Below, in pieces: positions 2,700 through 42,377 of a stretch of DNA of 64,000 nucleotides. The notes beneath the pieces are model-generated. The model worked only from the letters and a program-made list of their open reading frames with translations, was not told the origin of the DNA and did no database searches. This DNA comes from Buxus sempervirens (Eukaryota; Streptophyta; Magnoliopsida; Buxales; Buxaceae): the NCBI GenBank assembly GCA_947561395.2, contig OX387183.1, positions 44,138,890 through 44,202,889 of the forward strand, read 5' to 3'. The stretch's first letter is position 1; each line of letters starts with the position of its first letter. The translations under genes were made by a program, and so were the position numbers.

Positions 2700-2830
2700 G
2701 ACCCCCGTGCCCGTATATATATTACGGTCACGCCCTGCCCGTATTATTAATACGGGCACGCCGTGACCGTATATCAACTGCAGGTATGACCAGACCGAAA
2801 ACAAAATACGGTCATGATCAGTTTGGCAAG
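2700..2830 (-). other. Palindrome cluster in T LTR (CCCGTA hairpins)
   Basis: Adjacent inverted repeats. One pairs GTGCCCGTA with TACGGTCAC over a 7-nt loop (one mismatch). One pairs TGCCCGTA with TACGGGCA over a 7-nt loop. A wider one pairs TGACCGTAT with ATACGGTCA. It lies in U3, upstream of the TATA box in element sense. The 5' LTR carries the same cluster at about 16388-16518. Confidence 0.7.
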
Positions 2831-2917
2831 ATTTTATACTTTTTTTTGACCTGTTTCAAATCCCAATTAATATTTTCAATTATTTTCTCATTTTTAGTGC
2901 AATTTGGGGTGTCTACA

Positions 2918-2933
2918 GCTGCCCCCTCTTTGC
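2918..2933 (-). other. Polypurine tract of element T
   Basis: In element sense the purine-rich GCAAAGAGGGGGCAGC directly abuts the 3' LTR start. Elements A (24790-24802) and B (39623-39635) have nearly the same tract, ending GGGGCAGC. It is the expected plus-strand DNA primer site. Confidence 0.85.
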
Positions 2934-11600: not shown

Positions 11601-12234
11601 TCCATCTTTTGATCTTCCCATGGTCCAGAGTGGCGAACCATCTTAATGCGGTTCCTGTCAGGCTCCTTTGGAAAATTTGGATCAAGATACCCTCATCCTG
11701 CCCGAACTGGCATAGGGCACCACAATACAACTTTAGGTGGCTCATGGGGCAACCAGTGCCATCATACTTGTCCAAGTCTGGGCACTTAAACTTAGCCGCC
11801 AGGTTAACATTGGGGTACAGGCACAGGTCTTCAAAATTGGTGCCTCCAAAGTTGTTTACCCCTTTGACTTCCCTTAGTTCATCTTGGATCATTTCTAACT
11901 TATGCATGAACTTTCTTTCAACCTCTTCCCTTATCCTTTCCTTTTCCTTAGCCCTGTTTGATTCAGCTGTCTCATCCCTGGTCAGTATAGGTTCAGGGGT
12001 GGGTTCATAGACGGGTTCAGGAGTTGGTTGCACTGGAGGTGGAACGTTGACTTGGGGTGGAGGTGCAGGGTTGGATGTGGATGCTTGGTTCTGGGCCTGC
12101 ATTTGTTGGGCCTGCACTTGTTGGGCCTGTACTGACAGTATGTTCTCTAGCATTCGGGCTAGTCCTGCCACTTGTTCTTGGAGTAGAACGACATCTGGAT
12201 GAGGAGCATCAACTTCATCTTCAATGGGATTCAT
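8602..12234 (-). CDS. gag-pro: Gag-protease polyprotein
   Basis: Capsid/nucleocapsid plus aspartic protease, intact at 1210 residues. It has a coiled-coil-like and Gln/Pro-rich N-terminus (1-90), a charged helix (90-125), the retrotransposon gag core (about 145-310, with FKCPDLDKYDGTGCP and FQRSLTGTALRWF), a C-x2-H...GH-x4-C zinc-knuckle-like motif (448-462), four PPLV(I/V)N repeats (578-648) and a Lys/Glu-rich stretch (685-715). Protease follows, with LIDNGS (D830) and LLLGRPWIH (900-908), then a G-patch-like segment (about 985-1030). Similarity to element B's gag continues upstream of this ATG (IIAPVTRSRARAMNP), so upstream codons may be translated or may follow a splice junction. It overlaps pol by 40 nt. 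Confidence 0.94.
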   Translation of the reverse strand: MNPIEDEVDAPHPDVVLLQEQVAGLARMLENILSVQAQQVQAQQMQAQNQASTSNPAPPPQVNVPPPVQPTPEPVYEPTPEPILTRDETAESNRAKEKERIREEVERKFMHKLEMIQDELREVKGVNNFGGTNFEDLCLYPNVNLAAKFKCPDLDKYDGTGCPMSHLKLYCGALCQFGQDEGILIQIFQRSLTGTALRWFATLDHGKIKRWKDLADAFLAQYRFNSEIMPDRYDVMRMSKGREETVRQYAKRWRETASQVRPPMLEQEMISTFISTLGQPFYSHLVGQTTTNFAALVQVADRIEDGIRSGKIIDHSAMVSQQDPNLKKGSGTKKNGNKKEGEVNMVQPPSGPNKPIQINVPTHFPTPSPSTQAPMRVNVPAAPSDQKRVFTKEEKDAYFAARRNRVFTPIPMTPSQLLPTLLQGGYITLREPNPNASNGRNFDPSTTCDYHMGAPGHPTDKCWPLKHAIHDLLDQNTLSFNTGAPNPPRTDIGQNPLPQHHGAGPSNVIGVISSDKITFDPSQLIAPIGTTVKVYFDRRSEGKEINMISKGNDSAAKNISSSLDRVSSLMAQMNITKPPLVINCHSSTFTPPIQSKPPLVINCDPLSASVTSANPQPKQLPPLVVNVPITQTSIAKSKLPPLVVNVPKPSYIESAVPWNYSEAFTTTCPAVESKEEVNLMMRSGKCVGVEEKQKETEKDKEEEKNKGKAKVGEEAPQVTNSEAADLMKVIKKSEFNVLEQLNKVLAQISILGLLLNSEKHRDSLLRILQGAHVPKNIEPDQLGRMVGQILSHNVITFSETEISPAGYHHVDPLHIAVLSKGCMIARVLIDNGSALNVCPLITFVKLNLERNKIKQNGRIIRAFDSSKTHSLGEVELPVTIGPYIFNITFEVMDIPAAFNLLLGRPWIHTARAIPSTLHQRVKYIRGQKVITVLAENLVPPMWSPDVPCIDMEMTADKLTFHSFQFEAVNYIPGGYQEKEGKLTCAEKMVKNVLEKYHFHPGKGLGVNLQGRIEPVQVKKMVHRAGLGSKPRKWKSQGQIEVMKFPHIRETFPKLSHMIQLSPPEDQSKPPYYNINPFQKPKPSTIQPYVPPPHPQAFGGPGPQAEQEQDFSEDIGAFFAMTEGKQEKVAEELPFIDWAAVEVPSGTSPTEEAGDATHPVLVISDADPELEEQACIPAPDSFILNNWEETPLTFEATFVWQTDMASKKKLH
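8611..8619 (-). promoter_or_regulatory. Candidate -1 ribosomal frameshift site (A9)
   Basis: In element sense there are nine consecutive A residues just before the gag-pro stop (TAG at 8602-8604). The gag frame reads through AAA AAA AAA; the pol frame is one base back and is open across the same run. The overlap of the two ORFs (8602-8641) is confined to this spot. The position and direction fit -1 slippage. A downstream stimulatory structure was not identified. Confidence 0.65.
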
Positions 12235-12283
12235 GGCTCGAGCTCTTGATCTGGTTACAGGAGCTATGATTGCAAGTGTGTTA

Positions 12284-12310
12284 GTACCTGGCGAAAATAA
12301 AGAGAAAATA
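12284..12310 (-). other. 3' splice-site-like sequence upstream of T gag
   Basis: In element sense a pyrimidine-rich run (TTTTCTCTTTATTTTCGCCAG) precedes GTAC, about 55 nt before the gag ATG. Element B has TTTCTTTGCTTTTCCTTATCCAG and then GTAC at the same place (about 34539-34568). Conservation of the CAG-GTAC junction in both elements suggests a leader intron acceptor; no donor was identified. Confidence 0.4.
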
Positions 12311-12434
12311 TCAGTGCCAATTTAATCTCATTCACATGTCTAGGTATGCCTATGTGCAAGCTGGGTGAACACGAGTTTGGATTTTTTATTTTTTTTAATT
12401 GCTTCTTTTTTTTATTTTTTTTTCTTTTTTTTTG

Positions 12435-12480: not shown

Positions 12481-12490
12481 AGAGAGAAAG

Positions 12491-13275
12491 GTCTGAAATT
12501 CAAAGGCTTTCAGAGGCCCGGGGGTTTTTTTTTGAAAAAGGTCTGAAATTCAGAGGCTTTCAGAGGCCCAGGGATATTTTTGGAAAAGGTCTGAAATTTA
12601 GAGGCTTTCAGAGGCCCAGGGATGTTTTGATGAAAGTCTGAAATTCAAAGGCTTTCAGAGGCCCAAAAGGAAAAGGTCTGAAATTCAAAGGCTTTCAGAG
12701 GCCCAAAAGTTCTGAAATTCAAAGGCTTTCAGAGACCCAAAAGAAAAAGGTCTGAAATTCAAAGGCTTTCAGAGGCCCAAAAGTTCTGAAATTCAAAGGC
12801 TTTCAGAGGCCCAAAAGAAAAAGGTCTGAAATTCAAAGGCTTTCAGAGGCCCAAAAGTTCTGAAATTCAAAGGCTTTCAGAGGCCCAAAAGAAAAAGGTC
12901 TGAAATTCAAAGGCTTTCAGAGGCCCAAAAGATTTGAAATTCAAAGGCTTTCAGAGGCCCAAAAGTTCTGAAATTCAAAGGCTTTCAGAGGCCCGGGGTT
13001 TTTTTGAGAAAAAGTCTGAAATTCAAAGGCTTTCAGAGGCCCAGGGATTTTTGAGAAAAAGTCTGAAATTCAAAGGCTTTCAGAGGCCCAGGGATTTTTG
13101 AGAAATAGTCTGAAATTCAAAGGCTTTCAGAGGCCCAGGGATTTTTTTGAAAAATCTGAAATTCAAAGGCTTTCAGAGGCCCAGGATTTTTTTGAAAAAT
13201 CTGAAATTCAAAGGCTTTCAGAGGCCCAAGAGCTTTGAAAAAGTCTAAAATTAAAAGGCTTTCAGAAGCCCAAGG
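12491..13275 (-). repeat. Tandem hairpin array in T leader (19 units)
   Basis: Nineteen units of about 30-50 bp. In each, TCTGAAA (element sense) pairs with TTTCAGA around the 9-nt loop GCCTTTGAA, followed by a variable spacer. Stems are almost uniform here; the last unit reads TCTAAAA on one plus-strand arm. The array occupies the same place, just upstream of gag, as the B array at 33262-34375, whose loop is GCCTCTGAA. No ORF runs through it. Confidence 0.9.
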
Positions 13276-13427
13276 AACCTTTCTCTCACATTTTTTCTTT
13301 TAATTATTTTGTTTGTTTTTTTTTTTTTTGAAGCATTTTATTCAAACTTGTTTCCCTTTATCATTATTTAAAGGTTAAAAGAATATTTTAGTGGGAAAAA
13401 CTGATTAAAGTTGAATATTCCGAGAAA

Positions 13428-14787: not shown

Positions 14788-16605
14788 TGTGAGACATGGG
14801 AAAAAATCAATTTAATGATTTCCTCCAATCATCACACGGGATTATATAAAACAAAGAGTCGCCACCATTCAATTTAGGTGTGAATGGACACAAAAATATT
14901 AAATAAGCACAAAAGGCAAATTTTAGGGTAAAAATAACCCTCCTTTAAAAACAACCAGAGATGGGTAAGGGGATTAAGTTATGAACAAGGGAAGGTGTTA
15001 GGCACCCCTATTCATCCACACAAGGTGGTTGCCAGGTATTTGTTCATGTTAAAAATAAAGGAAAAAGCTTGCTATAAAAATCACACAAAATCACAAAAAA
15101 GGCAAAAATATATGGTTTTTTCATATGAATAGTCTGATTGATCCAGAACTATCAAACATGATCATACCATTCCTACGGTTTCATGATCAAAATAAAATTG
15201 AGATGAAATCAAATAAAATCAATTTAAAGTGAAAAATCCAAAAATCTGGCTTCAAGTCAAAATTCTAGAAATCTAGAAAAATATGATTTTTATAAAATAT
15301 TTCAAAATTGAACTTGAATAATCCAAGACATAGATAAAGCCCAAATTTCACATTAAATCTGAAAATCAAAACCAAAAATATCCTCATTGATGAAAAACAC
15401 CAAAAGGGGAGAATTTAGACCGTAGGGTCTTCTCCCAATAATGAAAAACAATTTAAAATCATCTCATGAAACCCTAGAATTTATTTTCAGGCTTGTGGAT
15501 TCAGATCTATCATATTGATCATGATAAATCCAAGATCCTCGCCTAAAACCACAAAAATCACGAAAATAGTGCTGTAGGTGCAAATATGTGGAAAATCCAA
15601 ATTTTATCAAAAAGTGGGGATCTCATGCTATAAACATCATGGATTCATGTTATTCATTCAGATATATCATAAAAAGCATTAAAACATGATCAGGATATTC
15701 AAAGCAGCCACATCTCACAAATTAGAGCACATGGGGGTCTACCCTACGGATCCACCTGTTCTCTTTTCCCCTAGTTCTCTCTTCACGTTTTACGGCTAGA
15801 GAGACTCTTGAGGTACTTAGAGATAGGTTTGGTTACACAAACACAATCACAGGTCTTATTCTATGAAAAAAGAAAAAAAACAGATATGGGGTTCTATTCT
15901 AGGGATCCACCTGTTCCCCTTTCCCCTAGTTCTCTCTTCACGTTTTACGGCTAGAGAGACCCTTGAGGTACTTAGAGACAAGTTTAGGAATACAAAAACA
16001 GATATGGCTTTATTCTACAGCAATAGAGATGATCCTATTACTTCTAGAATTGAAGACAGAAAATAAAAAAGGATAGGGGACTTACCTGGATTGAGCAGGC
16101 AAAGCAGCAGGGATTCCTTTCCTTCTCTTGGAGCTTTTGATTCTTCAAAATTTCGTGGCTTAGCTAGAGAAAAGGCCCTCTATTTATAGGCAAACACAGG
16201 GGTATGGTTGGTCCAAGGTTTGGCAAGATAGAGTTTCAATTTGAGTTAAACACAAGATCATGCCAATCCTTTATCCAGAAGGATAAATGAGATAATTCGA
16301 ACAGATAAATAAGAGAATTCGCTTATCCAAGAGAGATATTTGGGTGCAGATAAGGCTCAAAAATCAAAAAGGTAAAATTCGCACAAGGACCCCCGTGCCC
16401 GTATATATATTACGGTCGCGCCCTGCCCGTATTATTAATACGGGCACGCCGTGACCGTATATCAACTGCAGGTATGACCAGACCGAAAACAAAATACGGT
16501 CATGATCAGTTTGGCCAGATTTTATACTTTTTTTTGACCTGTTTCAAATCCCAATTAATATTTTCAATTATTTTCTCATTTTTAGTGCAATTTGGGGTGT
16601 CTACA
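14788..16605 (-). repeat. 5' LTR of element T
   Basis: 1818 bp, the same length as 1100-2917 and almost identical to it (I counted about six substitutions by eye). It carries the probable active promoter: the minus-strand TATA box at 16180-16188, in a CTATAAATAG context. It abuts the GACCC target duplicate at 16606-16610. Confidence 0.95.
16180..16188 (-). promoter_or_regulatory. TATA box of element T (5' LTR)
   Basis: TATAAATAG on the minus strand, in the LTR upstream of gag-pol. The palindrome cluster at 16388-16518 lies upstream of it in U3. Confidence 0.75.
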
Positions 16606-16610
16606 GACCC

Positions 16611-26696: not shown

Positions 26697-28728
26697 TAGC
26701 TTGCTGTATTGGGTCCATTAAAGTGCGTGCTCCTTCACCCCACCAAAACCCCCTAGGTTCAGCATGTTAGTATCCCGAATGAGGGGTGGCTTTCCCCCTC
26801 CCTAATCCCCATGGTTTCCAACCCTTTTGGCATGGTCAATCACCATTACTAGCTGCTGTCCAAGGCACCTACAGCATGCTTTTATTCAAATATGTTTGCA
26901 TGGTAGGACCATTACTTGCACGCACACCAAGTGCACACACCTATCCCCAACTTAGTGGCATGCTAGGTCACTTTCCCTCCATTTCTAGCCCCCTTTTAGC
27001 ATGCTAATCCCCTCCAAACAGCTGCTGGTTTGGCTCACCTGCAGCGTGGTTTCTCTTTATAAATTTGTGTAGCATGCCTATGTACATTTGTATTTCTTGA
27101 ATACATGCACATTTCTCCATTAGAAGCATGCTAGGTCACTCTTTTTACTTGCATTATTATTTAATTTGTTTACATGAGCACCGACTTCGCTTCATATGTA
27201 CATGTTATGTGAGTACTTATTAGGGTTTAAGTCATGCCACCAAGACCTATGTGGTTGTCCCCCTTTTACCTTATTTGATTGCTTGTGGATTTATGGAATG
27301 AAGATGCCAAAAAAACACAGGGACACTCAAGTCCCTGTTTCACTGCTGATTTGGATGTAAATGGGAGAAGGCAAAGCCCGTAGCCTTCTCCCCCTCACCC
27401 ATGGTTCAAAGGTCCCTAGAGAGACCCAAAATGGGGTATTCCCCCACACTTTGCACCACTGTGGGCCCACACAGGGGCCCACATGGTCACTAGAACCTCC
27501 TAGGAAGCCCAAAAACCACCCCAACTGCAAAGCCCTTAAAAATGCATGGTTGGGTGTGACTTTTGGTTTTTGTTAATTTGAATAACCTCACAAGTGAACC
27601 AAGCGAACCGATAGGGTTTCCGGGTCATCCGGAAACCCGACATGGGACCTGGACCCTCGGTCCAATTTGGAACATCCATGGGCCTTCCAACGGGGCCCAC
27701 CAAGCCCGATGAACCGGAAAGCATGCAAATAAGCAAAATTAAGTGAAATTAACCAATCAAATCGGATGGGCCAAACCTAATGCGGCCCACCCTAACTTTG
27801 TTTGTGGAATGATGTTTAAATTGCGTGGTTTGGCCGAGACCAAGGGCAAGGGCCTATCGGGCCCGTCAAAGCCCACCAACCAACCAAGTGAGGGTTTAAA
27901 ACCCTAAACTTCAGGAACATGGGCTTGCAAGCCTAAGATTGGACTACGGGCCCCAAGCCCCAATGTCCACAACCCTTTGGTGAATTTAAATAAGATAATT
28001 TGAAAACGTTTTGGCAACCATCATGGGGGCCCACCTAGGGGCCCGCAAATCAATGCAGACCGATTTGTTACAGGGAAACCACATAAATGCCCAAATTAAA
28101 CTTTACGGAAAAATCAATTCACTTCACCAAAGCCTACAGGGCCTCCTAGGCTTAGACAGAGGCCCACATGGGTACATGGGCTTACCCAAGCCCACCAAGG
28201 ACACCATGGACCTTCCAACGGGGTCCACACCATCAGACACAGATCACCTAATTCAAGCGAGATAAAATCAACTAAAGGGACTGTAGAAACCCCAAAATTG
28301 CACGATTTTTGATAAATCTTCAAGGAGAGAAATATTTTATTGGAATTTCCAATTCTTTGCATTGGGTTTGAGATACTTAAACCATTTGAATCCAAAACGG
28401 AAAAGGAAAATGCCCGAATTCAATCTTTTGTGCAAAGTCAAGCTTTTTCCGGTTGAATTTTGTTGACTTTTGACCCCAGAAAATGAAATATTTTTTAAAG
28501 CCAGATTTCAAGATAATTTTTCCCGGTAATCAGGTTTTTAGCCATGTTATTGCATAAAAGAATTTTTTGTGATTTTAAATCTTGACGAATACCTTGGTTT
28601 TAACATATTGAACCTTTTTTCCAGACCTGAAAAATCGGAATTTTGCCTAGAACTGGAAAGTTGACTTTTTATTCACTTGGAATTTGGGTCTGGAACTATT
28701 TTTAATGGATTCAAATGGGGGGTGTTTG

Positions 28729-28800
28729 CTTATTTACATATAATATCTTAAGTAAATGGAGATTAAAACATTTACTTAAACGATATTACATGTAAATAAG
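28729..28800 (+). other. Long imperfect inverted repeat in B LTR
   Basis: The left arm starts CTTATTTACATATAATATC and the right arm ends GATATTACATGTAAATAAG. About 30 bases per arm pair with a small bulge and a loop of about 10 nt. The 3' LTR copy (40083-40142) has the same arms with one more paired base and a shortened tip. Confidence 0.75.
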
Positions 28801-28840
28801 TATTGCCTATGTTAAAATTTGGAAAAAAGGCTTTTTTCCC

Positions 28841-28990
28841 TGTATCCGGCAACTCAGGCCGGATACAAGTGCTTCTCTTTGTATCCGGTGGAAAGTGCAG
28901 GATACAAACGAACTTTAGTGTATCCGGCATTATATACCGGATACATTAAAGCTCTAGTGTATCCAGCCTGATATGCCAGATACATTAGTT
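28841..28990 (+). other. Four 27-nt hairpins (10-7-10) in B 5' LTR
   Basis: Units of fixed length 27 with stem TGTATCCGGC/GCCGGATACA and 7-nt loops (AACTCAG, GGAAAGT, ATTATAT, CTGATAT). In this 5' LTR some arms have G-to-A or C-to-A changes (for example ATCCAGCC) that break pairs kept in the 3' LTR at 40186-40330. They lie in U3 about 150 bp upstream of the TATA box. Confidence 0.85.
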
Positions 28991-29138
28991 TTGCTCAAAA
29001 TTAGGGTTTTCCGAGAGAAATCACTTTTTACCATCATGTCCCTCATTAAATGAGGGGAAATCTCGGAAAAAGCCTTAGGGTTAAGGTTGAGGGGTTCTAG
29101 ACATTAAGTTGTGTCTACCAACAACCCTAGCCTTTGCC

Positions 29139-29146
29139 TATAAATA
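29139..29146 (+). promoter_or_regulatory. TATA box of element B
   Basis: TATAAATA in a GCCTATAAATAGGAGG context, identical in the 3' LTR at 40482-40489. Confidence 0.75.
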
Positions 29147-31035
29147 GGAGGCTCCTCTTCAAGCAAAGGGCCAAGTTTTTGGAGATCGAAGAACTCCGAG
29201 TGAAGAAGGGAACCGCTGCTGGATTGCTTCCAGAACCCCAGGTAAGCCTCAACCCTCATTTATTTTCTGTATTTAATTTATTAGATCTAGATCTCTTCTT
29301 CTACCTTTCTGTAGAATAAAGCCTCTTTTTGTGTGTGGAAATCCTTCCCCGGCTCAAAGTATCTCAAGACTCCCCCTAGCCGTAAAACGTGAAGGAGGGA
29401 TCAAGGAGAAACGAGACTGGGGATTGACCCTAGTGCTAGAACCCATGTAGCATAAGGCTTTTGAATGATTGAAAACCGTTCCATAATCAAAGTACCCTTG
29501 ATTATCTCGAAGAACCGTGTTTAACGGGGAGAGAGAACAGAGGGAAACGATAATGGAACGGGACCCTAGGCTATTTTAGAACCTCATTTTGATGAAGATA
29601 TATGCATGCTATGTTGTTCTATTGATCTTATATGGTTTCTCACATTTGCACATACATAGCACCGTTTTGACGGGATAGGCTCATATTTGGGGTTTATTAC
29701 ATTCATTGTGATAAATCTCAAATAAATGGCCTCAATCAAATTCTGGAATGTTTTAAATGTTTTTCAAAAGTTTTAGATTCATCTCACACGAATCTCACAC
29801 ACTTGATCACAGTTTTGAGTCGGTTTTACTCAAAAGTGGCCTAACTGGACAGCACCTGTACCCTGACTTCGGACGCTCATAACTTCATCATCCGGATGAA
29901 TTTTGGCGTGATTCCAGAACCATGGGAAAGGTGAGGCTGTCTAGTTTATGTCCACCAAATTTCATAAATTTCCCTCAAACGGATTTTTGACACCTCTCTG
30001 TCGAAGTTAAGTAGACAGTTCAGGTTCACATACAGAACTTGTCACTTCGACGGACCGCCATGTGTTCGTTTTAAATCCGATTCAAGTGATTTTTGTTTTT
30101 GAGTACTCCTTTATGAGTCTATTTTCAAATCCAGTTGGTTTCATAATTTTTGGATTCCATTTGAAGTATTGGTAGCCGATTTACTCAGAACTGTTCATTT
30201 GTACTTTTCTGGGTAAATCTGTGATCTTCGGGGCCTGTTCGGGAGACCACCCAAGGCACATCCCAAGGGATTTTTATATGAGGCTAGTTTCTTTTGAAAG
30301 ATGGCCATACAGACTTCAATCACACCAAATTTCGTGGATTTTTATGCAGTGGATGTTTCTATGCAATTTCCCAAAGTTGCCCACTTATCACTTTTAAAAA
30401 TCCCCAGCAGCAACTTCAAAGGAGCATAACTCCTAGGATTTTCATCGGAATGAAGTGAAATTTTGCATGAGATTCTCATTTACCCTAATCTTTCAAATTA
30501 ATTTGGTTTGGTTCAATTTAGAATTGGATTTGAATGATTTCAAGGCAAATGGCATACTTTTTACCGAATTTTCCGGATTTGATTTAACTTGGTTTTTGAG
30601 CAACTTTTGCTTTGATTTCCATCTTTTGAGATATTCCAGAAATGATATTGACATAAGAGAGGATCTAAAATCCATTTAGATCTTCATGTGAAAATATCAT
30701 ACATTGTTCCTTTTTCAAGGTTTTCTATGATTTTAGCAAGCTTTCTTATTTTTGCATGAACATACACTTGGCTACCACTTCGTGTGGATGAATGGGGGTG
30801 CCTAACACCTTCCCCCGTTCATAATCTAATCCCCTTACCCATCTCTGGATTTGATTTTCAAGTAGGGTTATTTTTATCCTAGAATGTTTTTTTGTCTCTT
30901 TTTGCTTATTTTTGAACTCTTTGGTGTCCATTCTCACCCCAAAATCATGAATGGTGGCGACTCTCCCATTTTTGCGTTGAGCCCGTGTGTTGACGGAGGG
31001 ATGATCATTCCTGTGATTTTCCCATGTCTCACAAC

Positions 31036-31054
31036 TGGCGACTTTGCTGGGGAC
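31036..31054 (+). other. Primer binding site of element B
   Basis: TGGCGACTTTGCTGGGGAC, 2 nt after the LTR end TCTCACA. Confidence 0.8.
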
Positions 31055-32403
31055 CTGTGGATTTAAGCCATTTTTTGTATTTGTTAATGCTTTTCTATAC
31101 TTTTGGATGCTTGCTATTTTGATTACTTTATTTGGGCATATTGTTACATTTCAAATCAGATTGGTATGCTTTGGATAAAGGCATAAGCATGTTGCTTGAT
31201 TTTTGTTGAAAAGAAAACCCATATTGTGATAAGACTTGGCTATATTATGTGATAGCATGTGTTATTTTGGGGTTTGAAGGCCATGAGCTAAAAAAAAAAT
31301 ACAATATTTGAAATCTGGAAATTTTATGTCTATTTTGGGTATTCAAGCATGTTTCGCCATGAATAAAGTTTTTTGTGCTTAATGTTTGTATGATGCCATG
31401 CATTTGATTTGGGGGTATAGGAGGACTTGATTTGAGCATGAAAGTAAAAAAAAAAAAAAAAATCTGGAAATTTAGTGCATATTTTGGGAGTTTTAAAGCA
31501 TGCTTTTACCATCAAAACTTTTCTTGTATCATGTCTAGTAGTGCTAAATTTTTAGGCATCAACTTGGGTAGAAATGGTACACTTTGAGCATGAAAAAAAA
31601 GCATGAAAATCCGGAATTTTAGGGAATGCTTTTGAGTTTCAAGCATGCTTCCATGGTTTAATTGTTGTTTGTACAAATGACATGTTTTGTATACCACTTT
31701 TTGGGCATGTAATATTTTTTGTGCATATTTAGTTGTTGGTGCTTGCTTGCTTGTATTTAGCTTCATCATTTTTGTCATATATACCTTGGCTTGAAATTAA
31801 ATGCATGGCTACGAAAAAGAGTGGCAAGGGGCTGGGACGTTGTGAATGTTACCACAATTTTAAAATTGCACTTGAGCACTTGAAACAATTTGCACAGCCT
31901 ACCCATTACCTATTAGGAAGTTGAACCATGAATGTGTGTAGCTTGGCGCACCGAGGTCGTGACTTCGTAAAGCGAAAGTGAAAACATTTACCTTAGAATT
32001 TGGGTCAATGATGTGATGACAATGGGATCTGTGATTCAATTCCGGGCATCACTAGACTTGAGTTCTAAGTTGCCAATTAAGCCAAAACCCAAAAACCATA
32101 CGCTTGAAGGTGGAGAAACACGTTTTCAGCTAAAAGCACACAATTGCGTTTGGGGGAATTGGGTGTAATTGTGGGAAGGCCGTTTGCATGTTTTACAGGC
32201 CAAGGTATAATGTGAATACCATATTGAATGAAGGTAATACAAGGTAAAGTCATTTTCTTTTCATGAATTTGGGAATTCTGCAAGTATGATGTCCAAGCCC
32301 AATCTAGGGCAAGTTTTGAGGGTCAAGTTAAGGTGAACATCAAGTGGGAATGAAAAAAAAACCTAATCTGGTGAAAAAATGAGTCAAAAAGGGCCATTTC
32401 GGC
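31055..32403 (+). other. B leader, proximal part, noncoding
   Basis: It contains three degenerate copies (about 31250-31650) of a segment around AAATCTGGAAATTT followed by AAGCATG, each with an A-rich tract. The part at about 31910-32340 aligns with T's leader. No conserved ORF. Confidence 0.65.
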
Positions 32404-32835: not shown

Positions 32836-33235
32836 ACCTTGGTTGGTCTCCTTTTTACCAATCAAGTCCAACAAAAAAAAGTGGGACCTCTGGAAGCCCT
32901 AGAATATTCCATGAACCCTTGGTTGGTCTCCTTTTTACCAATCAAGTCCAAAAAAAAAAAATGGGACCTCTGGAAGCCCTAGAATATTCCATGAACCCTT
33001 TATTGGTCTTCTTTTTACCAATCAAATCAAAAATTGTGGGACCTTTGGAAGCCCTAGAATATTCCATAAAAACCTTGGTTGGTTATTTTTATCAATCAAA
33101 TAAAAAATTGTAGGACCTTTGGAAGCCCTAGAATATTCCAAGAAACCTTGGTTGGTTATTTTTATCAATCAAATCAAAAATTTATTAGGACCTTTGGAAG
33201 CCTCAGAATATTCCAAAAACCTTTGTTTGGTCACG
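32836..33235 (+). repeat. B leader repeats with alternating hairpins
   Basis: Four to five units of about 80-100 bp. Each has TTGGTTGGT facing ACCAATCAA or ATCAATCAA (G-U pairs allowed), then a GCCCTAGAATA loop between TGGAA-type and TTCCA-type arms (TTTGGAA/TTCCAAG in later units). They precede the main array. Confidence 0.75.
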
Positions 33236-33261
33236 AGAACCATTCAAAGTCAAAAAACTTT

Positions 33262-34375
33262 TGGGTCATTTGAAAGCCTCTGAATTTCAAACATCAACTT
33301 TTTTTGGGCCGTCTATAAGCCTCTGAATTATAGACACATATCCTTTGGGCCATCTAAAAGCCTCTGAATTTTAGACACAACTTTTTTGGGCCGTCTAAAA
33401 GCCTCTGAATTTTAGACAAATTATTTCTTTGGGCCATCTATAAGCCTCTGAATTATAGACATATATCCTTTGGGCCATCTAAAAGCCTCTGAATTTTAGA
33501 CACATATCCTTTTGGCCGTCTAAAAGTCTCTGAATTTTAGACACAACCTTTTTGGGCCGTCTAAAAGCCTCTGAATTTTAGACACAACCTTTTTGGGTCA
33601 TTTGAAAGCCTCTGAATTTCAAACATCAACCTATTTTGAGCCGTCTATAAGCCTCTGAATTATAGACACACATCTCTTTGGGCCATCTACAAGCCTCTGA
33701 ATTATAGACACATATCCTTTGGGCCGTCTAAAAGCCTCTAAATTTTAGACACAACCTTTTTGGGCCATTTGAAAGCCTCTGAATTTCAAACATCAACCTT
33801 TTTTGGCCGTCTTAAAGCCTCTGAATTTTAGACACAACCTTTTTGGGCCATTTGAAAGCCTCTGAATTTCAAACATCAACCTTTTTGGGCCGTCTAAAAG
33901 CCTCTGAATTTTAGACACAACCTTTTTGGGCCATTTGAAAGCCTCTGAATTTCAAACATCAACCTATTTTGGGCCGTCTATAAGCCTCTGAATTATAGAC
34001 ACATATCTTTTGGGCCGTCTAAAAGCCTCTGAATTTTAGACACAACCTTTTTGGGCCGTCTAAAAGCCTCTGAATTTTAGACAAATTATTTCTTTGGGCC
34101 GTCTATAAGCCTCTAAATTATAGACATATATCCTTTGGGTCATTTAAAAGCCTCTGAATTTTAGACACAACTTTTTTGGGCCGTCTATAAGCCTCTGAAT
34201 TATAGGCACAACTTTTTTGGGCCATCTAAAAGCCTCTGAATTTTAGACACAATCCTTTGGGCCGTCTAAAAGCCTCTGAATTTCAGACACAACTTTTTTG
34301 GGCCGTCTATAAGCCTCTGAATTATAGACACGTATTCTTTGGGCCGTCTAAAAGCCTCTGAATTTTAGACATTTC
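33262..34375 (+). repeat. Tandem hairpin array in B leader (27 units, covarying stems)
   Basis: I counted 27 units of about 35-45 bp with loop GCCTCTGAA. Three stem classes: GTCTAAAA/TTTTAGAC (14 units including variants), GTCTATAA/TTATAGAC (8, one with a single mismatch) and TTTGAAA/TTTCAAA (5). Changes on one arm are almost always matched on the other. The classes are interspersed, so this is not one recent block duplication. Spacers include TTTGGGCC and ACACAACC. It lies directly upstream of gag. Confidence 0.92.
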
Positions 34376-34529
34376 TCATTCTTTGGGACCTTTGGAAGCC
34401 CTAAAATATTCCAACAATCAAAAAAACAAAACAAAAAATGGAAAAATATAGAAAAAAAACAAATAAATCCGGACTTGTGTTCACCTAACCCACTTATCTA
34501 CATTTATAGGTGTGTGACTCAGATTAAAT

Positions 34530-34570: not shown

Positions 34571-36713
34571 TTTACTTGCAACCCAGGTACACTTATTTGC
34601 AATCATTGCTCCCGTGACCAGATCCAAAGCCAGAGCTATGAACACTGAAGAGAATCAAGCCCAAGCCACTGTACCCGCTCAAGACTTTGCTCAGCTGCAG
34701 GAGCAAGTGGCTGGTCTGGCCAAGATGCTGGGAGACCTACTGGCGGCTCAGGCCCAACAGGCCCAGGCCCAAAACCAAGCATCGACTTCCCATCAAGCAC
34801 CACCACCTCAGGCCTACATTCCGCCTCCGGCTCAACCCATGCCTGAGCCCATTTCTGAACCAGTCCCTGAACCCATTCTGATCAAGGAAAATACAGCAGA
34901 ATCCGAGAAAGAACTGGAGAAAGAAAAAGCCAGGGAAGAAACTGAAAGGAAAATGCTGCTCAGGATAGAAAGGATCCAGGAAGAACTGAAAGAAGTGAAA
35001 GGGGGAAATAGCTATGGAGGCACCACTTTCGAGGATCTGTGCATATATCCTGACGTATGTCTACCGGCCAAGTTCAAGGGCCCGGACTTCGACAAGTTCG
35101 ACGGCACAGGCTGCCCTATGAGCCATTTGAAACTATACTGCGGGGCTTTGTGCCAGTTTGGCCGGGATGACGGCATATTGATCCAACTCTTTCAGAGGAG
35201 TTTGACAGGATCGGCTCTTAGGTGGTTCGCCACAGTTGATCATGGGAAGATTAGAGGATGGAAGGATCTGGCAGACACCTTCTTAGACCAATACAAATTT
35301 AACTCGGAGATCGTGCCAGACCGGTACGACATTATGAGGATGAGCAAGGGCAAAGATGAATCTGTGCGGAAATATGCCAAGAGGTGGAGAGAGGTTGCCT
35401 CCCAGGTCAGGCCGCCTATGCTGGAACCTGAAATGATCTCAACATTCATGGGTATGCTGGGGCAGCCCTTCTACAATCACCTGGTGGGTCAGATCACCAC
35501 CAATTTTGCTGCCCTGGTACAGGTGGTAGACCGGATTGAGGATGTGATCAAATCTGGCAAGATAATTGATTATTCCGCCCTGGTCAGTCAACAAGACTCC
35601 ATTCATAACAAGGGAAATGGAAATGGAAATGGAAAGAAAAAATCTGAGGAAAGGAGAGAAGCAGAAGTGAATATGGTGCAGCTTCCCAAGGGACCCTTTC
35701 AAGCCAATGCCCATCCAATTCCTTTGCTGCCTATCCAAATTAATGTCCCTTCTGCACAGCCTGTGAAGGAGGAAACAGAAGTAAGGAAGAGAAGGGAGTT
35801 TTCAAAACTGCCTATGAGACCATCTGAACTTTTGCCTACCCTACTTCAAAAGGGTTATGTGACTTTGAGGTTGCCAAATCCTCATGCAAGCAAGGGGAAG
35901 GGTTATGATCCATCTGCAATCTGTGAATATCATATGAGCACTCCAGGGCATACCACAGATCGTTGCTTGGCCCTAAAGCATGAAATTCAGGATTTGCTGG
36001 ATAATAACTCTTTATCATTCAATTCAGTCACACCCACTCCTCCTCCCACCAGCAACAATGGGGCAAGCAGCTCAAATGCAATAGGGTCAATTTTTTCAGG
36101 AAAAAGAAGATTTGACCCTTCTCAACTTATTGCTCCGGTTGGTACCACAATCCAGGTTTATTTTGAAAAAGAAGATGAAGGGGGCCATGTGGAGAAAGAG
36201 ACTCACACAGGGGCAGATTTTAAGCCGAAGGTGAAAGAAAATGAAATGACAGGTGAAAGGGCAAAGGAGGTGCAAACAATTCCATTTGAGCAGTTTAAGC
36301 AAACAAGTGGCCTAGCACGAGATGTTGAACAAGAAGTCAGTATGGACGATAATGATTGTCTGAAGGGTATGGAATCACTCTTCATACAAGAAGAAAATGA
36401 AGTAGAAGCAATTGAAAAGGGAGAATCCCAGGAAAAGAAAGAACAAGATTTAAAAGAAAAGATTGAGGCCAAGTTTAAGCTTCCATTGATTGACTGGGCT
36501 GCTATCCAGATTCCGTATAAAGGAATGTCACTTCTTTCAGAAACTAAGCACAATACCCCAGAGAAGGGGATCATCCCCATTCATGAAAAGAGAAACTTGC
36601 CTCATTCAGCAGCAGAAAGAAATTTTCTGAAAAAGAAAGAAAAGCTAGCTTTTGCCTTTGAGAACAGGGGTAAATTTCAAATTCCCTTGTTCTCTGAAAA
36701 GAAACCCCCTTAA
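34548..36713 (+). CDS. gag: Gag of element B (no protease or pol)
   Basis: Structural protein; intact at 721 codons from the first ATG, but the ATG at 34638 (residue 31, MNTEEN) corresponds to T's start and is the more likely initiator if no splicing occurs. Coiled-coil-like region and Gln/Pro-rich N-terminus (48-110), charged helix (115-150), gag core (about 165-340, FKGPDFDKFDGTGCP and FQRSLTGSALRWF), conserved MRPSELLPTLLQKGY, zinc-knuckle-like C459-x2-H462...GH468-x4-C473, then the FDPSQLIAPVGTT segment. After a charged linker it ends with KLPLIDWAAIQIP, which matches ELPFIDWAAVEVP near the end of T's gag-pro. The PPLV repeats, protease and G-patch-like parts of T are missing between these anchors. 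Sequence after about residue 670 is not recognised. Confidence 0.92.
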   Translation: MLFLIQVHLLATQVHLFAIIAPVTRSKARAMNTEENQAQATVPAQDFAQLQEQVAGLAKMLGDLLAAQAQQAQAQNQASTSHQAPPPQAYIPPPAQPMPEPISEPVPEPILIKENTAESEKELEKEKAREETERKMLLRIERIQEELKEVKGGNSYGGTTFEDLCIYPDVCLPAKFKGPDFDKFDGTGCPMSHLKLYCGALCQFGRDDGILIQLFQRSLTGSALRWFATVDHGKIRGWKDLADTFLDQYKFNSEIVPDRYDIMRMSKGKDESVRKYAKRWREVASQVRPPMLEPEMISTFMGMLGQPFYNHLVGQITTNFAALVQVVDRIEDVIKSGKIIDYSALVSQQDSIHNKGNGNGNGKKKSEERREAEVNMVQLPKGPFQANAHPIPLLPIQINVPSAQPVKEETEVRKRREFSKLPMRPSELLPTLLQKGYVTLRLPNPHASKGKGYDPSAICEYHMSTPGHTTDRCLALKHEIQDLLDNNSLSFNSVTPTPPPTSNNGASSSNAIGSIFSGKRRFDPSQLIAPVGTTIQVYFEKEDEGGHVEKETHTGADFKPKVKENEMTGERAKEVQTIPFEQFKQTSGLARDVEQEVSMDDNDCLKGMESLFIQEENEVEAIEKGESQEKKEQDLKEKIEAKFKLPLIDWAAIQIPYKGMSLLSETKHNTPEKGIIPIHEKRNLPHSAAERNFLKKKEKLAFAFENRGKFQIPLFSEKKPP

Positions 36714-37883
36714 GAAGAATGCACATTTCCTGAGGATCCTAAGGAGCCTTGTTCTCAGGAAGTGATTTCAATAAAGGCTCTTTCAAAAAAAAAAAAAGAT
36801 TTTCCCCTTTAACATTTTTCTAAAAGAAAAAAAAGGTTTTCAACAAGGTCCTGTTTTACTTATGAGTCATATCTCTCATTGAATTTCATTAAGTTGAATA
36901 TGACTTCGACATTGGGCTCAATTTTGAGACCGAAAGCGAAGAAAAAGACATTTTATATGAAAATTCAAATCTTTTTAAGTGTCATGAGAAGAATATTTCT
37001 GCAAAATTTTGAAGTGACCAATCTTATGGACTTTAGAACCAAAGATGACCCGAAGTTTTCACTTGAAAGCAGCAAGTACAAATATTTATTTCATAAAAAT
37101 ACAGAGAGGATCGCATCACTTGCTCATCAAGGAAAATTAGATGGAGAAGAAACTGAAAGATGAAATTTTTGCATTTGAAGATGACTCCTGGTTTGCACTC
37201 TCCATCGGAAAATATGGAAAGATTTGGATTGCGATTTAAGAGGCTGATCCGATAAGAAGGATGTTTTATGGTTGAAATTTTATCTTCCCAGGTCGCGATG
37301 ATTAAAAAAAAAAAAGAAAAAGAAAAATCCTGAGCCAGTCATGTAGTACAACTCTGTCAAGTCTAAAAATTCAAACTTTTCTTAAAATGATAAGAGGCCT
37401 TTCTTTCTTATATCCCCAAAATTTTTGAAATCCCTAGTTAGACTCTTTGAGCTTGATAAATTTTTCCAAGTAACCTAAACTGAGAATTGCAACCCCACAC
37501 TGGGGCAAATTTATAAGGCATAAAAAAAAAAAAAAAGAATGAAGGGACAAGAGAAGGGGGGCATTATTGAAGTTCAAAAGGGATTTTGAAGATGTTTTCA
37601 GAAAAGGGGGCGAAGAAATGAAAAAAAAAGAGGGAAGAAAGAAGAAAAACAGATCAATAAATGCTATATCTTCAAAATTGTAAAGGGAAGAATGAGAAAA
37701 GAAGTTCAATAATGGGAAATAAGTTTTAAATGAAGAAATCAAAGTGGGTGAAGAACTTCATTACTGGGGGCAATTTTGTATTCATTCCAAGGGAAGAAAT
37801 GCCTTAAAAATTGCAATTTCAGTTAACCCATTAGATAATATGGTATTTGAGCCTTTTATTCCTTTTCTTTCTAAACAAACACC
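36714..37883 (+). other. B 3' region, noncoding
   Basis: No pol remnant. A-rich tracts, and CACTGGGGCAAA near 37497-37508 as in the 3' regions of A and T. Confidence 0.6.
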
Positions 37884-37921
37884 AAGCCTTCGTTTCGTCC
37901 CATCCATAAGTCCTCTTTGAT
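37884..37921 (+). other. Conserved noncoding block, B copy
   Basis: AAGCCTTCGTTTCGTCCCAT followed by CCATAAGTCCTCTTTGATT. It aligns with both A copies and with T. Confidence 0.72.
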
Positions 37922-39054
37922 TAAGAAATTTTGAATTAAGGCGGTTCTAACTACATAGCTGCTGATGATGAAGGATTAAAAACAAAAAAAAAACAAAACA
38001 AAACAAAAAGAGAAAAATGTAGAAAATGTAGTGAAAACCTAGAAGGGCGCTACATGGCAAATAATCAGCTATCTACAAGAAGGAAATTGTCAGAGAGAAA
38101 AATCCAGAATTGGCATAGATCCAGGTGAAATCCTCAGGTTGGTGGTTATTTTTCACTCTTCAAGTGATTGAGGAAAGTCTTCTTTTCAAGATTGAAGCAA
38201 ACATAATAAGAGCTATGGTATAAAGCATTTGTGAACAAGTTGATGGCCATCAAAATTGCCATTAGGAAATTATTGCTGAAGTTGAAGTCATAAATTCTCA
38301 TATCATGGATACAATGGAGAAACAATTGCTCTTCAATTGGATGAAGGAAAATGTCTTTCTAGACTGGGGCAAAATAGTTAGATTGAAAGAGTCGGCATAT
38401 CTGGAGCATCAATTGACAAGCCGATGGTCATGGGAATGATTCTAAAGGTTCTGAAGGCTTATTTTGGTCTTTCTTCATTTTCTGAAATAATCTTCTCATT
38501 ATTCAACTTGATTTTAATTCTTTTGGACTATATGCTAATAAGTGATTGGATCATTCTTCAAAAAAAAAAAAGCACAAAAAAAGCAAAAAAATATATTTTT
38601 GGCCTATGATGAGCATCTATGTCTTTTCATAAAAACATTAGTTTTGCAAGCATTAGAGAATTCTTAGGCCACTAGTATAAAACCTATTTTTTTATTTCCA
38701 TTCCTTTATAAGGGTTTCTTTTTGTAAATGTTAAAAAAAAGAAAAAAAAGAAGAAAGAGAAAAAGAAAAAAAAAGAAAGAAAAAAGAAAAAAAAAAGGGA
38801 AAAAAGAGGATCATCTCTGCTGAGGGGCAAATACTACTTCAAGCAATCAAAACTGGGGCATGCTCAGCGCCTTTCCCTCTGGGTTTTCATTGGAATAAAT
38901 TACAGCATCTGGAAGAAGTAGTCAGGCCTTAGTCTTTGGATTTGAAAAAAAAAAAGAAACTTCGAAGTAGTTGCATGTTTTCTCCTTTAAACAAAGGTTT
39001 CTAATTCTGAAGAAGGATTTTACTGGAGCAGTAAGAAGGCATGAATGAGAGGTC
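37922..39054 (+). other. B 3' region between conserved block and small ORF
   Basis: Noncoding; ACTGGGGCA motifs (for example 38361 and 38852) and A/G tracts, collinear with T 3808-4640 in reverse. Confidence 0.55.
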
Positions 39055-39327
39055 ATGGGTGGTAAGGGCATGAGGTTAGATCAACAGATCATGATTTTCA
39101 AATCCATCAATAAAGAAGAGGCAGTCACTTGGGCAGTTGAGAAGCATAAAGGCAGGCTATGGGAAGCAATGGCACATACATCCTTATTGAGAGAGCAAGA
39201 AGAGGAAGAAGCAAAAGCAAGTTGCAGAATATTCAAGCACAGGTTTGGGCATCAAATGCACCAAGGTAAATCAAATAAGAAAATGAATCGGGAAAATTCA
39301 ATAAAATATTTCCTTCCTTATTGTTGA
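39055..39327 (+). pseudogene. Homologue of the T small 3' ORF
   Basis: A 90-codon ORF whose central part matches T's ORF at 3541-3807 (TWAVEKHKGRLW, AHTSLLREQEEEEAKASCR, IFKHRFGHQM). The matching region begins upstream (KKDFTGA at about 39011) but is cut by a TGA, so it is probably broken relative to T. Function unknown. Confidence 0.4.
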
Positions 39328-39391
39328 AAAACATCAAAAGCAATTGAGTTTGCAGAGGTCAATTTTAAATCCACATTCTTTTCAAAATTTG

Positions 39392-39445
39392 CTTGTCTCA
39401 GATTTCTTTTCATAGCCACGAGAGCTCAAAGAAATCTGAGATAAG
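39392..39445 (+). other. Long hairpin with conserved 20-nt loop (B copy)
   Basis: Arms CTTGTCTCAGATTTCTT (39392-39408) and 39429-39445 pair over 17 positions with one G-U. The loop (39409-39428) contains TTCATAGCCACGAGAGCTC, identical at 19 of 20 positions to T's loop in element sense. Confidence 0.85.
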
Positions 39446-39622
39446 GAAGAGACGCCACCCCATTAGACTATACACAGCAGGGGTTTCATTGGCTATCTTC
39501 AAATCCATGTTTTTATCACTCATTTGTTTGACCAAAGCAAGTTCAATTAATGAGGTGTCTTTAAACCGTGCAATTTTGAGTTGTGTCTATTCTTTGCTGT
39601 TCATTGTGCTACAACTCCAGCA

Positions 39623-39635
39623 AAGAGGGGCAGCT
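39623..39635 (+). other. Polypurine tract of element B
   Basis: AAAGAGGGGCAGC directly before TGTAGACACCCC. Confidence 0.85.
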
Positions 39636-42377
39636 GTAGACACCCCAAAATTGCACGATTTTTGATAAATCTTGAAGGAGAGAAATATTTTATTGGAATT
39701 TCCAATTCTTTGCATTGGGTTTGAGATACTTAACCCATTTGAATCAAAAACGGAAAAGGAAAATGCCTGAATTCAATCTTTTGTGCAAAGTCAAGCTTTT
39801 TCCGGTTGAATTTTGTTGACTTTTGACCCCAGAAAATGAAATATTTTTTAAAGCCAGATTTCAAGATAATTTTTCCCGGTAATCAGGTTTTTAGCCATGT
39901 TATTGCATAAAAGAATTTTTTGTGATTTTAAATCTTGGCGAATACCTTGGTTTTAACATATTGAACCTTTTTTCCATACCTGAAAAATCGGAATTTTGCC
40001 TAGAACTGGAAAGTTGACTTTTTATTCACTTGGAATTTGGGTCTGGAACTATTTTTAATGGATTCAAATGGGGGGATGTTTGCTTATTTACATGTAATAT
40101 CTTAAGTGGACATTTACTTAAACGATATTACATGTAAATAAGTATTGCCTGTGTTAAAATTTGGAAAAAAAGGCTTTTTTCCCTGTATCCGGCAACTCAG
40201 GCCGGATACAAGTGCTTCTCTTTGTATCCGGTGGAAAGTGCCGGATACAAACGAACTTTAGTGTATCCGGCATTATATACCGGATACATTAAAGCTCTAG
40301 TGTATCCGGCCTGATATGCCGGATACATTAGTTTTGCTCAAAATTAGGGTTTTCCGAGAGAAATCACTTTTTACCATCATGTCCCTCAATAAATGAGAGG
40401 AAATCTCGGAAACAGCCTTAGGGTTAAGGTTGAGGGGTTCTAGACATTAAGTTGTGTCTACCAACAACCCTAGCCTTTGCCTATAAATAGGAGGCTACTC
40501 CTCAAGCAAAGGGCCAAGTTTTTGGAGATCGAAGAACTCCGAGTGAAGAAGGGAACCGCTGCTGGATTGCTTCCAGAACCCCAGGTAAGCCTCAACCCTC
40601 ATTTATTTTCTGTATTTAATTTATTAGATCTAGATCTCTTCTTCTACCATTCTATAGAATAAAGCCTCTTTTTGTGTGTGGAAATCCTTCCCCGGCTCAA
40701 AGTATCTCAAGACTCCCCCTAGCCGTAAAACGTGAAGGAGAGATCAAGGAGAAACGAGACTGGGGATTGACCCTAGTGCTAGAACCCATGTAGCATAAGG
40801 CTTTTGAATGATTGAAAACCGTTCCATAATCAAAGTACCCTTGATTATCTCAAAGAACCGTGTTTAACAGGGAGAGAGAACAGAGGGAAACGATAATGGA
40901 ACGGGACCCTAGGCTATTTTAGAACCTCATTTTGATGAAGATATATGCATGCTATGTTGTTCTATTGATCTTATATGGTTTCTCACATTTGCACATACAT
41001 AGCACCGTTTTGACGGGATAGGCTCATATTTGGGGTTTATTACATTCATTGTGATAAATCTCAAATAAATGGCCTCAATCAAATTCTGGAATGTTTTAAA
41101 TGTTTTTCAAAAGTTTTAGATTCATCTCACACGAATCTCACAAACTTGATCACAGTTTTGAGTCGGTTTTACTCAAAAGTGGCCTAACTGGACAGCACCT
41201 GTACCCTGACTTCGGACGCTCATAACTTCATCATCCGGATGAATTTTGGAGTGATTCCAGAACCATGGGAAAGGTGAGGCTGTCTAGTTTATGTTCACCA
41301 AATTGCATAAATTTCCCTCGAACGGATTTTTGACACCTCTCTGTCGAAGTTAAGTGGACAGTTCAGGTTCAAATACAGAACTTGTCACTTCGATGGACCG
41401 CCATGTGTTCGTTTTAAATCCGATTCAAGTGATTTTTGTTTCTGAGTACTCCTTTATGAGTATATTTTCAAATCCAGTTGGTTTCATAATTGTTGGATTC
41501 CATTTGAATTATTGGTAGCCGATTTACGCAGAACTGTTCATTTGTACTTTTCTGGGTAAATCTGTGATCTTCGGGGCCTGTTCGGGAGACCACCCAAGGC
41601 ACATCCGAAGGGATTTTTATATGAGGCTAGTTTCTTTTGAAATATGGCCATACAAAATTCAATCACACCAAATTTCGTGGATTTTTATGCAGTGGATTTT
41701 TCTATGCAATTTCCCAAAGTTGCCCACTTATCAATTTTAAAAATCCCCAGCAGCAACTTCAAAGGAGCATAACTCCTAGGATTTTCATCGGAATGAAGTG
41801 AAATTTTGCATGAGATTCTCATTTACCCTAATCTTTCAAATGAATTTGGTTTGGTTCAATTTAGAATTGGATTTAAATGATTTCAAGGCAAATGGCATAC
41901 TTTTTACCGAATTTTCCGGATTTGATTTAACTTGGTTTTTGAGCAACTTGTGCTTTGATTTCCATCTTTTGAGATATTCCAGAAATGATATTGACATAAG
42001 AGAGGATCTAAAATCCATTTAGATCTTCATGTGAAAATATCATACATTGTTCCTTTTTCAAGGTTTTCTATGATTTTGGCAAGCTTTCTTATTTTTGCAT
42101 GAACATACACTTGGCTACCACTTCGTGTGGATGAATGGAGGTGCCTAACACCTTCCCCCATTCATAATCTAATCCCCTTACCCATCTCTGGATTTTATTT
42201 TCAAGTAGGGTTATTTTTATCCTAGAATGTTTCTTTTGTCTCTTTTTGCTTATTTTTGAACTCTTTGGTGTCCATTCTCACCCCGAAATCATGAATGGTG
42301 GCGACTCTCCCATTTTTGCGTTGAGCCCGTGTGTTGACGGAGGGATGATCATTCCGGTGATTTTCCCATGTCTCACA
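39636..42377 (+). repeat. 3' LTR of element B
   Basis: 2742 bp. It matches the 5' LTR with dozens of substitutions and small indels. Hairpins at 40186-40330 are better paired than in the 5' copy. TATA at 40482-40489. Confidence 0.94.

What the first reader, a model, noticed from the sequence alone, without database searches (positions are those of the whole stretch)
33262..34375. 27-unit leader array in which the loop is fixed and the stems covary
Seen directly: loop GCCTCTGAA is nearly invariant, while arms switch among GTCTAAAA/TTTTAGAC, GTCTATAA/TTATAGAC and TTTGAAA/TTTCAAA, with both sides changing together in almost every unit and the classes interspersed. Ordinary tandem-repeat drift does not conserve pairing. 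Inference: the RNA (or single-stranded cDNA) hairpin matters, for example for genome packaging, dimerisation by loop contacts, or gag binding.
Basis: partly seen in the sequence, partly recalled or inferred. Interest (0 to 1): 0.87.

Follow-up and report, generated by a model that had tools for sequence, protein, structure and literature searches.

The report
Hairpin array in plant retrotransposon leader
A family of plant retrotransposons carries, just before its gag gene, tandem arrays of small hairpins whose loop stays fixed while the paired arms change together, which suggests a repeated RNA recognition signal, though its function is untested.

Summary
33258-34371 has 27 units; 22 have fully Watson-Crick 7-bp arms in three classes, 24 if G.U counts, with loop GCCTCTGAA. 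It lies between LTR and gag of a Ty3/gypsy element (E2) in which no reverse transcriptase was found; a second element (E1), with gag, RT and two RNase H domains, has a homologous array with a fourth stem class. Of 62 leaders examined, 58 carry hairpin arrays: this type (37) or a related two-hairpin unit. Interspersion inside arrays is block duplication: three classes recur in 30-36 leaders, and 843 units hold no compensated change beyond them. So independent covariation events are few (my estimate: 3-6 pairs). Yet loop and arms are 4-17 times less diverse than the spacer, covariation exceeds shuffles, and the companion hairpin keeps G.U pairs on the sense strand. I favour selection on an RNA hairpin motif, most likely a multi-copy Gag-recognition or packaging element; template-switch upkeep of palindromes is the main rival. 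Strand tests were mixed. A pseudoknot is possible, not shown. No function was tested. New variant of a known kind.

The parts
33258..34371 (+). 27-unit hairpin array: upstream GGGCC, 7-nt arm, loop GCCTCTGAA, arm, A/T-rich spacer
32837..33232 (+). about five units of about 80 bp, mostly with two hairpins each: H1 (TTGGTTGGT or TTGATTGGT with ACCAATCAA or ATCAATCAA) and H2 (TGGAA, loop GCCCTAGAATA, TTCCA)
34390..34416 (+). H2-type hairpin between the array and gag; the same sequence type lies before gag in E1
28281..31033 (+). 5' LTR of E2
   Evidence: 97.6% to 39634-42377
31036..31055 (+). probable primer binding site, TGGCGACTTTGCTGGGGACC, 2 nt after the LTR
   Evidence: role inferred from position
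34638..36713 (+). gag ORF of E2 (open frame 34539-36713); zinc-knuckle-like CX2HX5HX4C starting at residue 462 of the frame
   Evidence: PF03732, 5.9e-11; motif by script
36714..39621 (+). rest of the E2 internal region: no match to the RT/RNase H pieces of E1 at E <= 1e-3; short matches only at 36654-37003
   Evidence: tblastn of E1 ORF pieces
39622..39634 (+). polypurine-tract-like stretch before the 3' LTR of E2
   Evidence: role inferred from position
39634..42377 (+). 3' LTR of E2
12487..13276 (-). homologous leader array of E1: 19 loop sites, 17 with arms TCTGAAA/TTTCAGA, loop mostly GCCTTTGAA
12440..12475 (-). H2-type hairpin between E1 array and gag (TGTTGGAA/TTCCAACA)
8602..12321 (-). 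E1 open frame: gag (PF03732) and G-patch (PF01585), from two 400-aa pieces scanned
5504..8653 (-). E1 open frame: RT, RT_RNaseH and a second RNase H (RVT_3), from one 400-aa piece scanned
1100..2918 (-). 3' LTR of E1
   Evidence: 99.67% to 14788-16606
14788..16606 (-). 5' LTR of E1

Best explanation
The array is a multi-copy RNA motif in the 5' leader of the genomic RNA of a family of Tat-like Ty3/gypsy retrotransposons. Each unit folds into a 7-bp hairpin that presents a fixed loop (GCCTYTGAA), with a fixed GGGCC just upstream. Selection keeps the loop sequence and the pairing of the arms, not the arm sequence. A few founder hairpins arose long ago, already compensated, and were multiplied by block duplication, perhaps during reverse transcription. 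The most likely job (inferred) is recognition in cis: many weak, like binding sites for Gag or its nucleocapsid-like part, for packaging or dimerising the genomic RNA. Shown: position, pairing, founder classes, conserved loop, hairpin arrays in 58 of 62 leaders. Inferred: that it acts as RNA, that it is under selection for a function, and that Gag binds it.
For: Homologous arrays before gag in two elements of the window, about 66-73% alike, with different paired stems. 801 loop sites (exact motif GCC[TC][CT]TGAA) in 37 leaders, 17 of them off-register sites from E1: pairs 1-7 are 95-98% Watson-Crick, and pair 8 is 49%. Pair 3 takes A-T and T-A, pair 4 A-T and G-C, pair 6 C-G and T-A; the related H2 hairpin has G-C at pair 3. 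Covariation score above 500 of 500 shuffles. Six paired arm types: 42 of 42 pairs, reached by 1 of 720 permutations; I picked them from the common fully paired types, so this is partly circular. Diversity per site, in units with the commonest spacer length (A 331, B 224, C 50): arms 0.004-0.023, loop 0.018-0.028, GGGCC 0.039-0.045, spacer 0.12-0.21. Hairpin H1 (529 units, 54 leaders): pair 2 G.U 374, G-C 132, A-U 20, A.C 2, other 1; pair 6 G.U 441, A-U 79, G-C 6, A.C 1, other 2. 58 of 62 leaders hold an array. Gag has a zinc-knuckle-like motif in both elements.
Against: No compensated change within 843 units beyond the three classes: the covariation rests on few old events. G.U over A.C departures 58:39, p = 0.067; in the H2 core it is reversed, 9:13. 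Antisense folds lower than sense in 6 of 7 window arrays by MFE; in 12 hand-picked leaders with the 76-bp unit sense is lower in 8. Local folding is below dinucleotide shuffles in the E2 array (z -3.1) but only -1.6 in the E1 array, while a non-array stretch of the E1 leader reached -2.7. Local-stem probability is 0.54 on the sense strand of the E2 array (antisense 0.25) but 0.21 in E1. A single 7-bp hairpin is weak, -2.5 to -5.1 kcal/mol. Common H2 forms (TTCCATG, 181 units in the two main types) lack the outer pairs. Hairpin-like arrays in other repeats of the window could point to a general mutational cause. E2 keeps gag, so keeping the leader does not tell packaging from gag translation.
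Confidence: 0.5

Rival explanations
1. Mutational upkeep without RNA function: template switching inside imperfect palindromes, in DNA replication or reverse transcription, copies one arm onto the other, so arms change together; block duplication then spreads the founders.
For: The mechanism is published (PMC8794818, passages seen). A-T to T-A at pair 3 has no paired intermediate. Other arrays in the window show changing arms round a like loop. The founder classes spread as blocks.
Against: It does not by itself predict a loop and GGGCC several times less diverse than the spacer. Two G.U pairs in H1 stay uncorrected in 331 units of 45 leaders. The A.C at pair 8, next to the stem, stays in 336 of 801 sites. 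No inverted loop was found in an exact search, which is weak, as the paper calls loop inversions with compensated changes extremely rare.
Confidence: 0.27
2. A translation device: the array holds the leader in a form that lets ribosomes reach gag (shunt or internal entry) or keeps the stretch before gag free of start codons.
For: The array ends 267 nt before the gag ATG. 36 arrays hold 52 ATG where base composition predicts about 536, with 820 CAT (ATG on the other strand); 22 of 36 have none. Repeats are not independent, so this is suggestive only.
Against: The whole E2 leader has 56 ATG (about 66 expected) and the E1 leader 50 (about 47), so scanning from the 5' end is hard anyway. A form of the H2 hairpin has ATG in it (TTCCATG).
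Confidence: 0.13
3. Each unit is an H-type pseudoknot: upstream GGG (or GGC) pairs with CCC (or GCC) in the loop. This is a refinement of the best explanation, not exclusive with it.
For: In the loop-11 hairpins, upstream GGG goes with loop CCC (421 units, 54 leaders) and AGG with CCT (69 units, 13 leaders); crosses AGG/CCC 3 and GGG/CCT 5 units, TGG/CCC 6. A 7-bp stem with a 1-2-nt first loop suits pseudoknot geometry (recalled, from no call). Loop positions GCCT are conserved.
Against: The GGG/AGG switch may be one event. A short H2 form (TTGGATAGAGTAGTCCAA) has lost the CCC. In the 9-nt-loop units the first G is the most variable of GGGCC, and GGCC of neighbouring units can pair instead.
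Confidence: 0.3
4. A DNA-level role (cruciform, recombination or satellite-like array) with no RNA function.
For: Tandem repeats of Ogre elements are known to turn into satellites (PMC7004042, passages).
Against: Hairpin arrays lie in the leader in 58 of 62 cases; H1 tolerates G.U.
Confidence: 0.05

Closest known systems
Tandem repeats in the 3' region of Retand/Ogre/Tat elements (PMC11963269, PMC7004042; passages seen)
   Same: same broad lineage; family-specific tandem arrays inside LTR elements
   Different: those lie between pol and the 3' LTR; these lie between the LTR and gag and are hairpins with a fixed loop and compensated arms. The word hairpin occurs 0 times in the main text of both papers
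Ty1 5' TIPIRT domain (PMC5454406; abstract and passages seen)
   Same: cis-acting structured RNA near the 5' end of an LTR retrotransposon; pseudoknot and loop contacts
   Different: single-copy parts tested by compensatory mutants; here dozens of tandem copies, untested
Retroviral psi packaging stem-loops (as described in PMC5454406, passages)
   Same: several stem-loops in the leader before gag
   Different: here tandem copies of one unit; Gag binding is not known here
Template-switch-maintained hairpins (PMC8794818; passages seen)
   Same: arms change together
   Different: here the loop and the sequence upstream are conserved, and G.U and A.C pairs last
BARE1/BARE2 pair (PMC3735527; passages seen)
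   Same: a parasitic element that keeps cis signals
   Different: BARE2 lacks Gag; E2 here keeps a gag frame and shows no RT

Membership tests
Tat-lineage Ty3/gypsy LTR retrotransposon | Paired LTRs with PBS and polypurine tract | tested here: met
   E2: LTR pair, PBS-like and PPT-like sites. E1: LTR pair and PBS-like site; its PPT was not found by the one motif search made
Tat-lineage Ty3/gypsy LTR retrotransposon | Second (archaeal-type) RNase H behind RT-RNase H (recalled as a lineage mark) | tested here: met
   E1: RVT_1, RT_RNaseH and RVT_3 in order; RVT_3 at 22.9 bits against a cut-off of 21.6
Tat-lineage Ty3/gypsy LTR retrotransposon | Own reverse transcriptase, in E2 | tested here: not met
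   tblastn of E1 ORF pieces finds gag and short matches only; E2 is placed by LTR, leader and gag likeness
Tat-lineage Ty3/gypsy LTR retrotransposon | Place in an RT tree among named lineages | not tested
   no tree was built
Leader packaging signal (psi or TIPIRT type) | Position in the leader near gag | tested here: met
   58 of 62 leaders hold arrays
Leader packaging signal (psi or TIPIRT type) | Pairing conserved while sequence changes | tested here: met
   few independent events
Leader packaging signal (psi or TIPIRT type) | Binds Gag and is needed for packaging | not testable with these tools
   bench work
H-type pseudoknot | Upstream strand pairs with the loop, with covariation | tested here: inconclusive
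   GGG/CCC and AGG/CCT association; may be one event; short H2 form lacks it
Template-switch-maintained hairpin | Loop inversions or correction to perfect pairing | tested here: inconclusive
   0 inverted loops in an exact search, but these are rare by the paper; lasting G.U and A.C
Tat 3' region tandem repeats | Position between pol and 3' LTR | tested here: not met
   the array is upstream of gag

The most novel reading that the evidence does not exclude
Plant Tat retrotransposons carry arrays of up to 44 near-identical hairpins, perhaps pseudoknots, as a repeated recognition code in the genomic RNA. Families have their own stem types but a like loop, and derivatives without their own reverse transcriptase keep the code and so share the particles of autonomous relatives. 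It would be a tandem, high-valency packaging signal.
Probability: 0.22. Interest if true: 0.8.

Novelty: new variant of a known kind. Interest (0 to 1): 0.58.

Why it matters
Little seems known of what marks plant retrotransposon RNA for packaging; [quoted passage not shown] A tandem motif with many natural variants per element is a ready test bed: loop, arms and GGGCC can be compared apart. If the motif is functional it also gives a reason why some internal tandem repeats of plant elements persist, instead of their being only copying errors.

Tried and rejected
Sense against antisense folding energy as a strand test: no consistent sense preference. G.U against A.C in stem departures: 58:39, p = 0.067, suggestive only; the 9-nt-loop units alone 30:16, p = 0.054. 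Protein search with the gag domain: 415 candidates, none at E <= 0.001, so no relatives or species from there. The pattern was mistaken (three extra N) and its zero means nothing. A genome-wide count of the motif did not complete. The X-array test holds off-register sites (its 40 units include some read out of register) and is rough. Paper searches: (and 62 on template switching) listed 15 of 75, 15 of 26, 10 of 12, 1 of 1, 0, 0, 8 of 34 and 10 of 28 papers; none of the listed titles or abstract beginnings is about leader hairpin arrays in plant LTR elements. Papers not listed were not looked at, and only open-licence papers are held.

Full report
What is there. The window lies in a 676.5-Mb genome of unnamed species; that it is a plant is my inference from its elements. 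At 33258-34371 there are 27 tandem units of about 41 bp. Each has GGGCC (or a near form), a 7-nt arm, loop GCCTCTGAA, the complementary arm and an A/T-rich spacer.

Where it lies. Element E2 has LTRs at 28281-31033 and 39634-42377, 97.6% alike, a PBS-like site behind the first and a PPT-like site before the second. Its gag frame (PF03732) has an ATG at 34638, 267 nt behind the array. Pieces of the E1 frames find gag and short matches in E2 but no RT or RNase H region at E <= 1e-3. Element E1 on the other strand has LTRs 99.67% alike, gag, a G-patch, RT, RNase H and a second RNase H (from three 400-aa pieces). Its leader holds a homologous array, 19 loop sites, 17 with arms TCTGAAA/TTTCAGA, loop mostly GCCTTTGAA. 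Four more short stretches upstream of E1-type gag hits (of 150 listed) hold 60 units, 58 of them with the same paired arms.

The family. A gag-domain search scored 150 of 8682 candidates. I fetched 3 kb upstream of 60 of the 150, chosen by hand down the list. With E1 and E2 that makes 62 leaders. 37 hold this array type (at least 3 units), 52 hold at least 3 H2 hairpins of a related 76-80-bp unit with two hairpins, 58 hold at least one of the two; L035, L036, L055 and L062 hold neither. In 36 leaders (E1 left out) there are 3-44 units. Of 35 leaders with at least 10 units of this type, 34 have open frames of up to 830 aa; of 13 leaders with frames over 1000 aa, 1 has such an array (Fisher p = 5e-5, E1 left out). 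Frame length is a rough sign, decay shortens frames, and the copies are related, so a subfamily without its own pol is an inference.

Is the covariation real? On 801 loop sites in 37 leaders, 17 of them off-register sites from E1, pairs 1-7 are 95-98% Watson-Crick and pair 8 is 49%. On 26 of 88 distinct cores, those found in at least 2 leaders, the covariation score is twice the shuffled mean and no shuffle of 500 reaches it; three pairs change on both sides, a number that shuffles reach in 146 of 500. The number of events is small. Classes A, B and C occur in 36, 35 and 30 leaders, each tied to its spacer. Within 843 units, assigned to the nearest class, there is no double change, only one-sided ones: 34 G.U, 18 A.C, 33 other. 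It does not account for the founders being paired: six common paired arm types pair 42 of 42, and 1 of 720 permutations does as well. I chose these six from fully paired types, so the test is partly circular; common H2 forms with TTCCATG, whose outer pairs are broken, were not among them.

RNA or DNA? For RNA: H1 holds G-C, G.U and A-U at two pairs and A.C in 3 of 1058 cells (units were found by fixed loop strings and a likeness of either arm to templates). Loop and GGGCC are less diverse than the spacer within each class, in 605 of the 843 units that have the commonest spacer length; arm diversity is lowered in part because classes were assigned by likeness. Arrays have few ATG on the sense strand, but repeats are not independent. 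Against or neutral: G.U to A.C departures 58:39, p = 0.067. By MFE the antisense strand is lower in 6 of 7 window arrays, and the sense strand in 8 of 12 hand-picked leaders. Local folding against shuffles: z -3.1 for the E2 array, -1.6 for the E1 array, but also -2.7 for a non-array stretch of the E1 leader, with +1.3 and +0.4 for two other controls. Template switching can keep hairpins paired (PMC8794818, passages); lasting G.U and A.C and a conserved loop speak against it as the whole story; the absence of inverted loops is weak, as they are rare.

Pseudoknot. In loop-11 units an upstream G or A goes with a loop C or T where a pseudoknot would pair them (421 and 69 units; crosses 3 and 5; 6 with T). 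This may be one old event. A short H2 form has lost the loop partner, and in the 9-nt-loop units GGCC can pair with the GGCC of the next unit. I leave it open.

Known or new. Tandem repeats in the 3' region of Tat-lineage elements are known (PMC11963269, PMC7004042, passages), and structured 5' RNA of Ty1 is well studied (PMC5454406, passages). The papers listed by my searches include none on hairpin arrays in the leader of plant LTR elements; the lists were capped and the library is partial. I rate it a new variant of a known kind. The packaging role is an inference from position, the conserved loop and a zinc-knuckle-like motif in gag.

Noticed in passing
23041-24110: A second hairpin-like array (GGAG-CAAGGCGA-CTCC, GGG/CCC, GAGAG/CTCTC, one GAAG/CTTC), about 700 bp before a PPT-like site at 24790 on the + strand, so probably the 3' region of an element, perhaps the one with gag at 18619-19941.
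   Followed up: partly
59305-59580: 12 units with fixed TTGGTG and changing arms (CTGC/GCAG, CCGC/GCGG, CCGT/ACGG, TGGC/GCCA); permutation p = 0.007 on 8 distinct arm pairs.
   Followed up: partly
17704-17990: Short hairpins of changing stems (CGCC/GGCG with TTCG loop, TGCTTT/AAAGCA, GGCC/GGCC) between repeats like ACATCAAA, before another gag frame.
   Followed up: partly
62810-63873: Another tandem array with short inverted repeats (AACTC...GAGTT).
   Followed up: no
8605-9804 (-): A G-patch domain (PF01585, 29.3 bits) in the gag-side open frame of E1.
   Followed up: no
33258-34371 and 35 fetched leaders: ATG scarce on the sense strand of the arrays: 52 against about 536 expected from base composition, CAT 820.
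   Followed up: partly
2708-2772, 16396-16460, 28900-28984, 40241-40327, 54360-54466: 39-bp and 28-bp palindromic repeats (CCGGATACA...TGTATCCGG; TGCCCGTATTATATAATACGGGCA), the first four inside the LTRs of E1 and E2.
   Followed up: no
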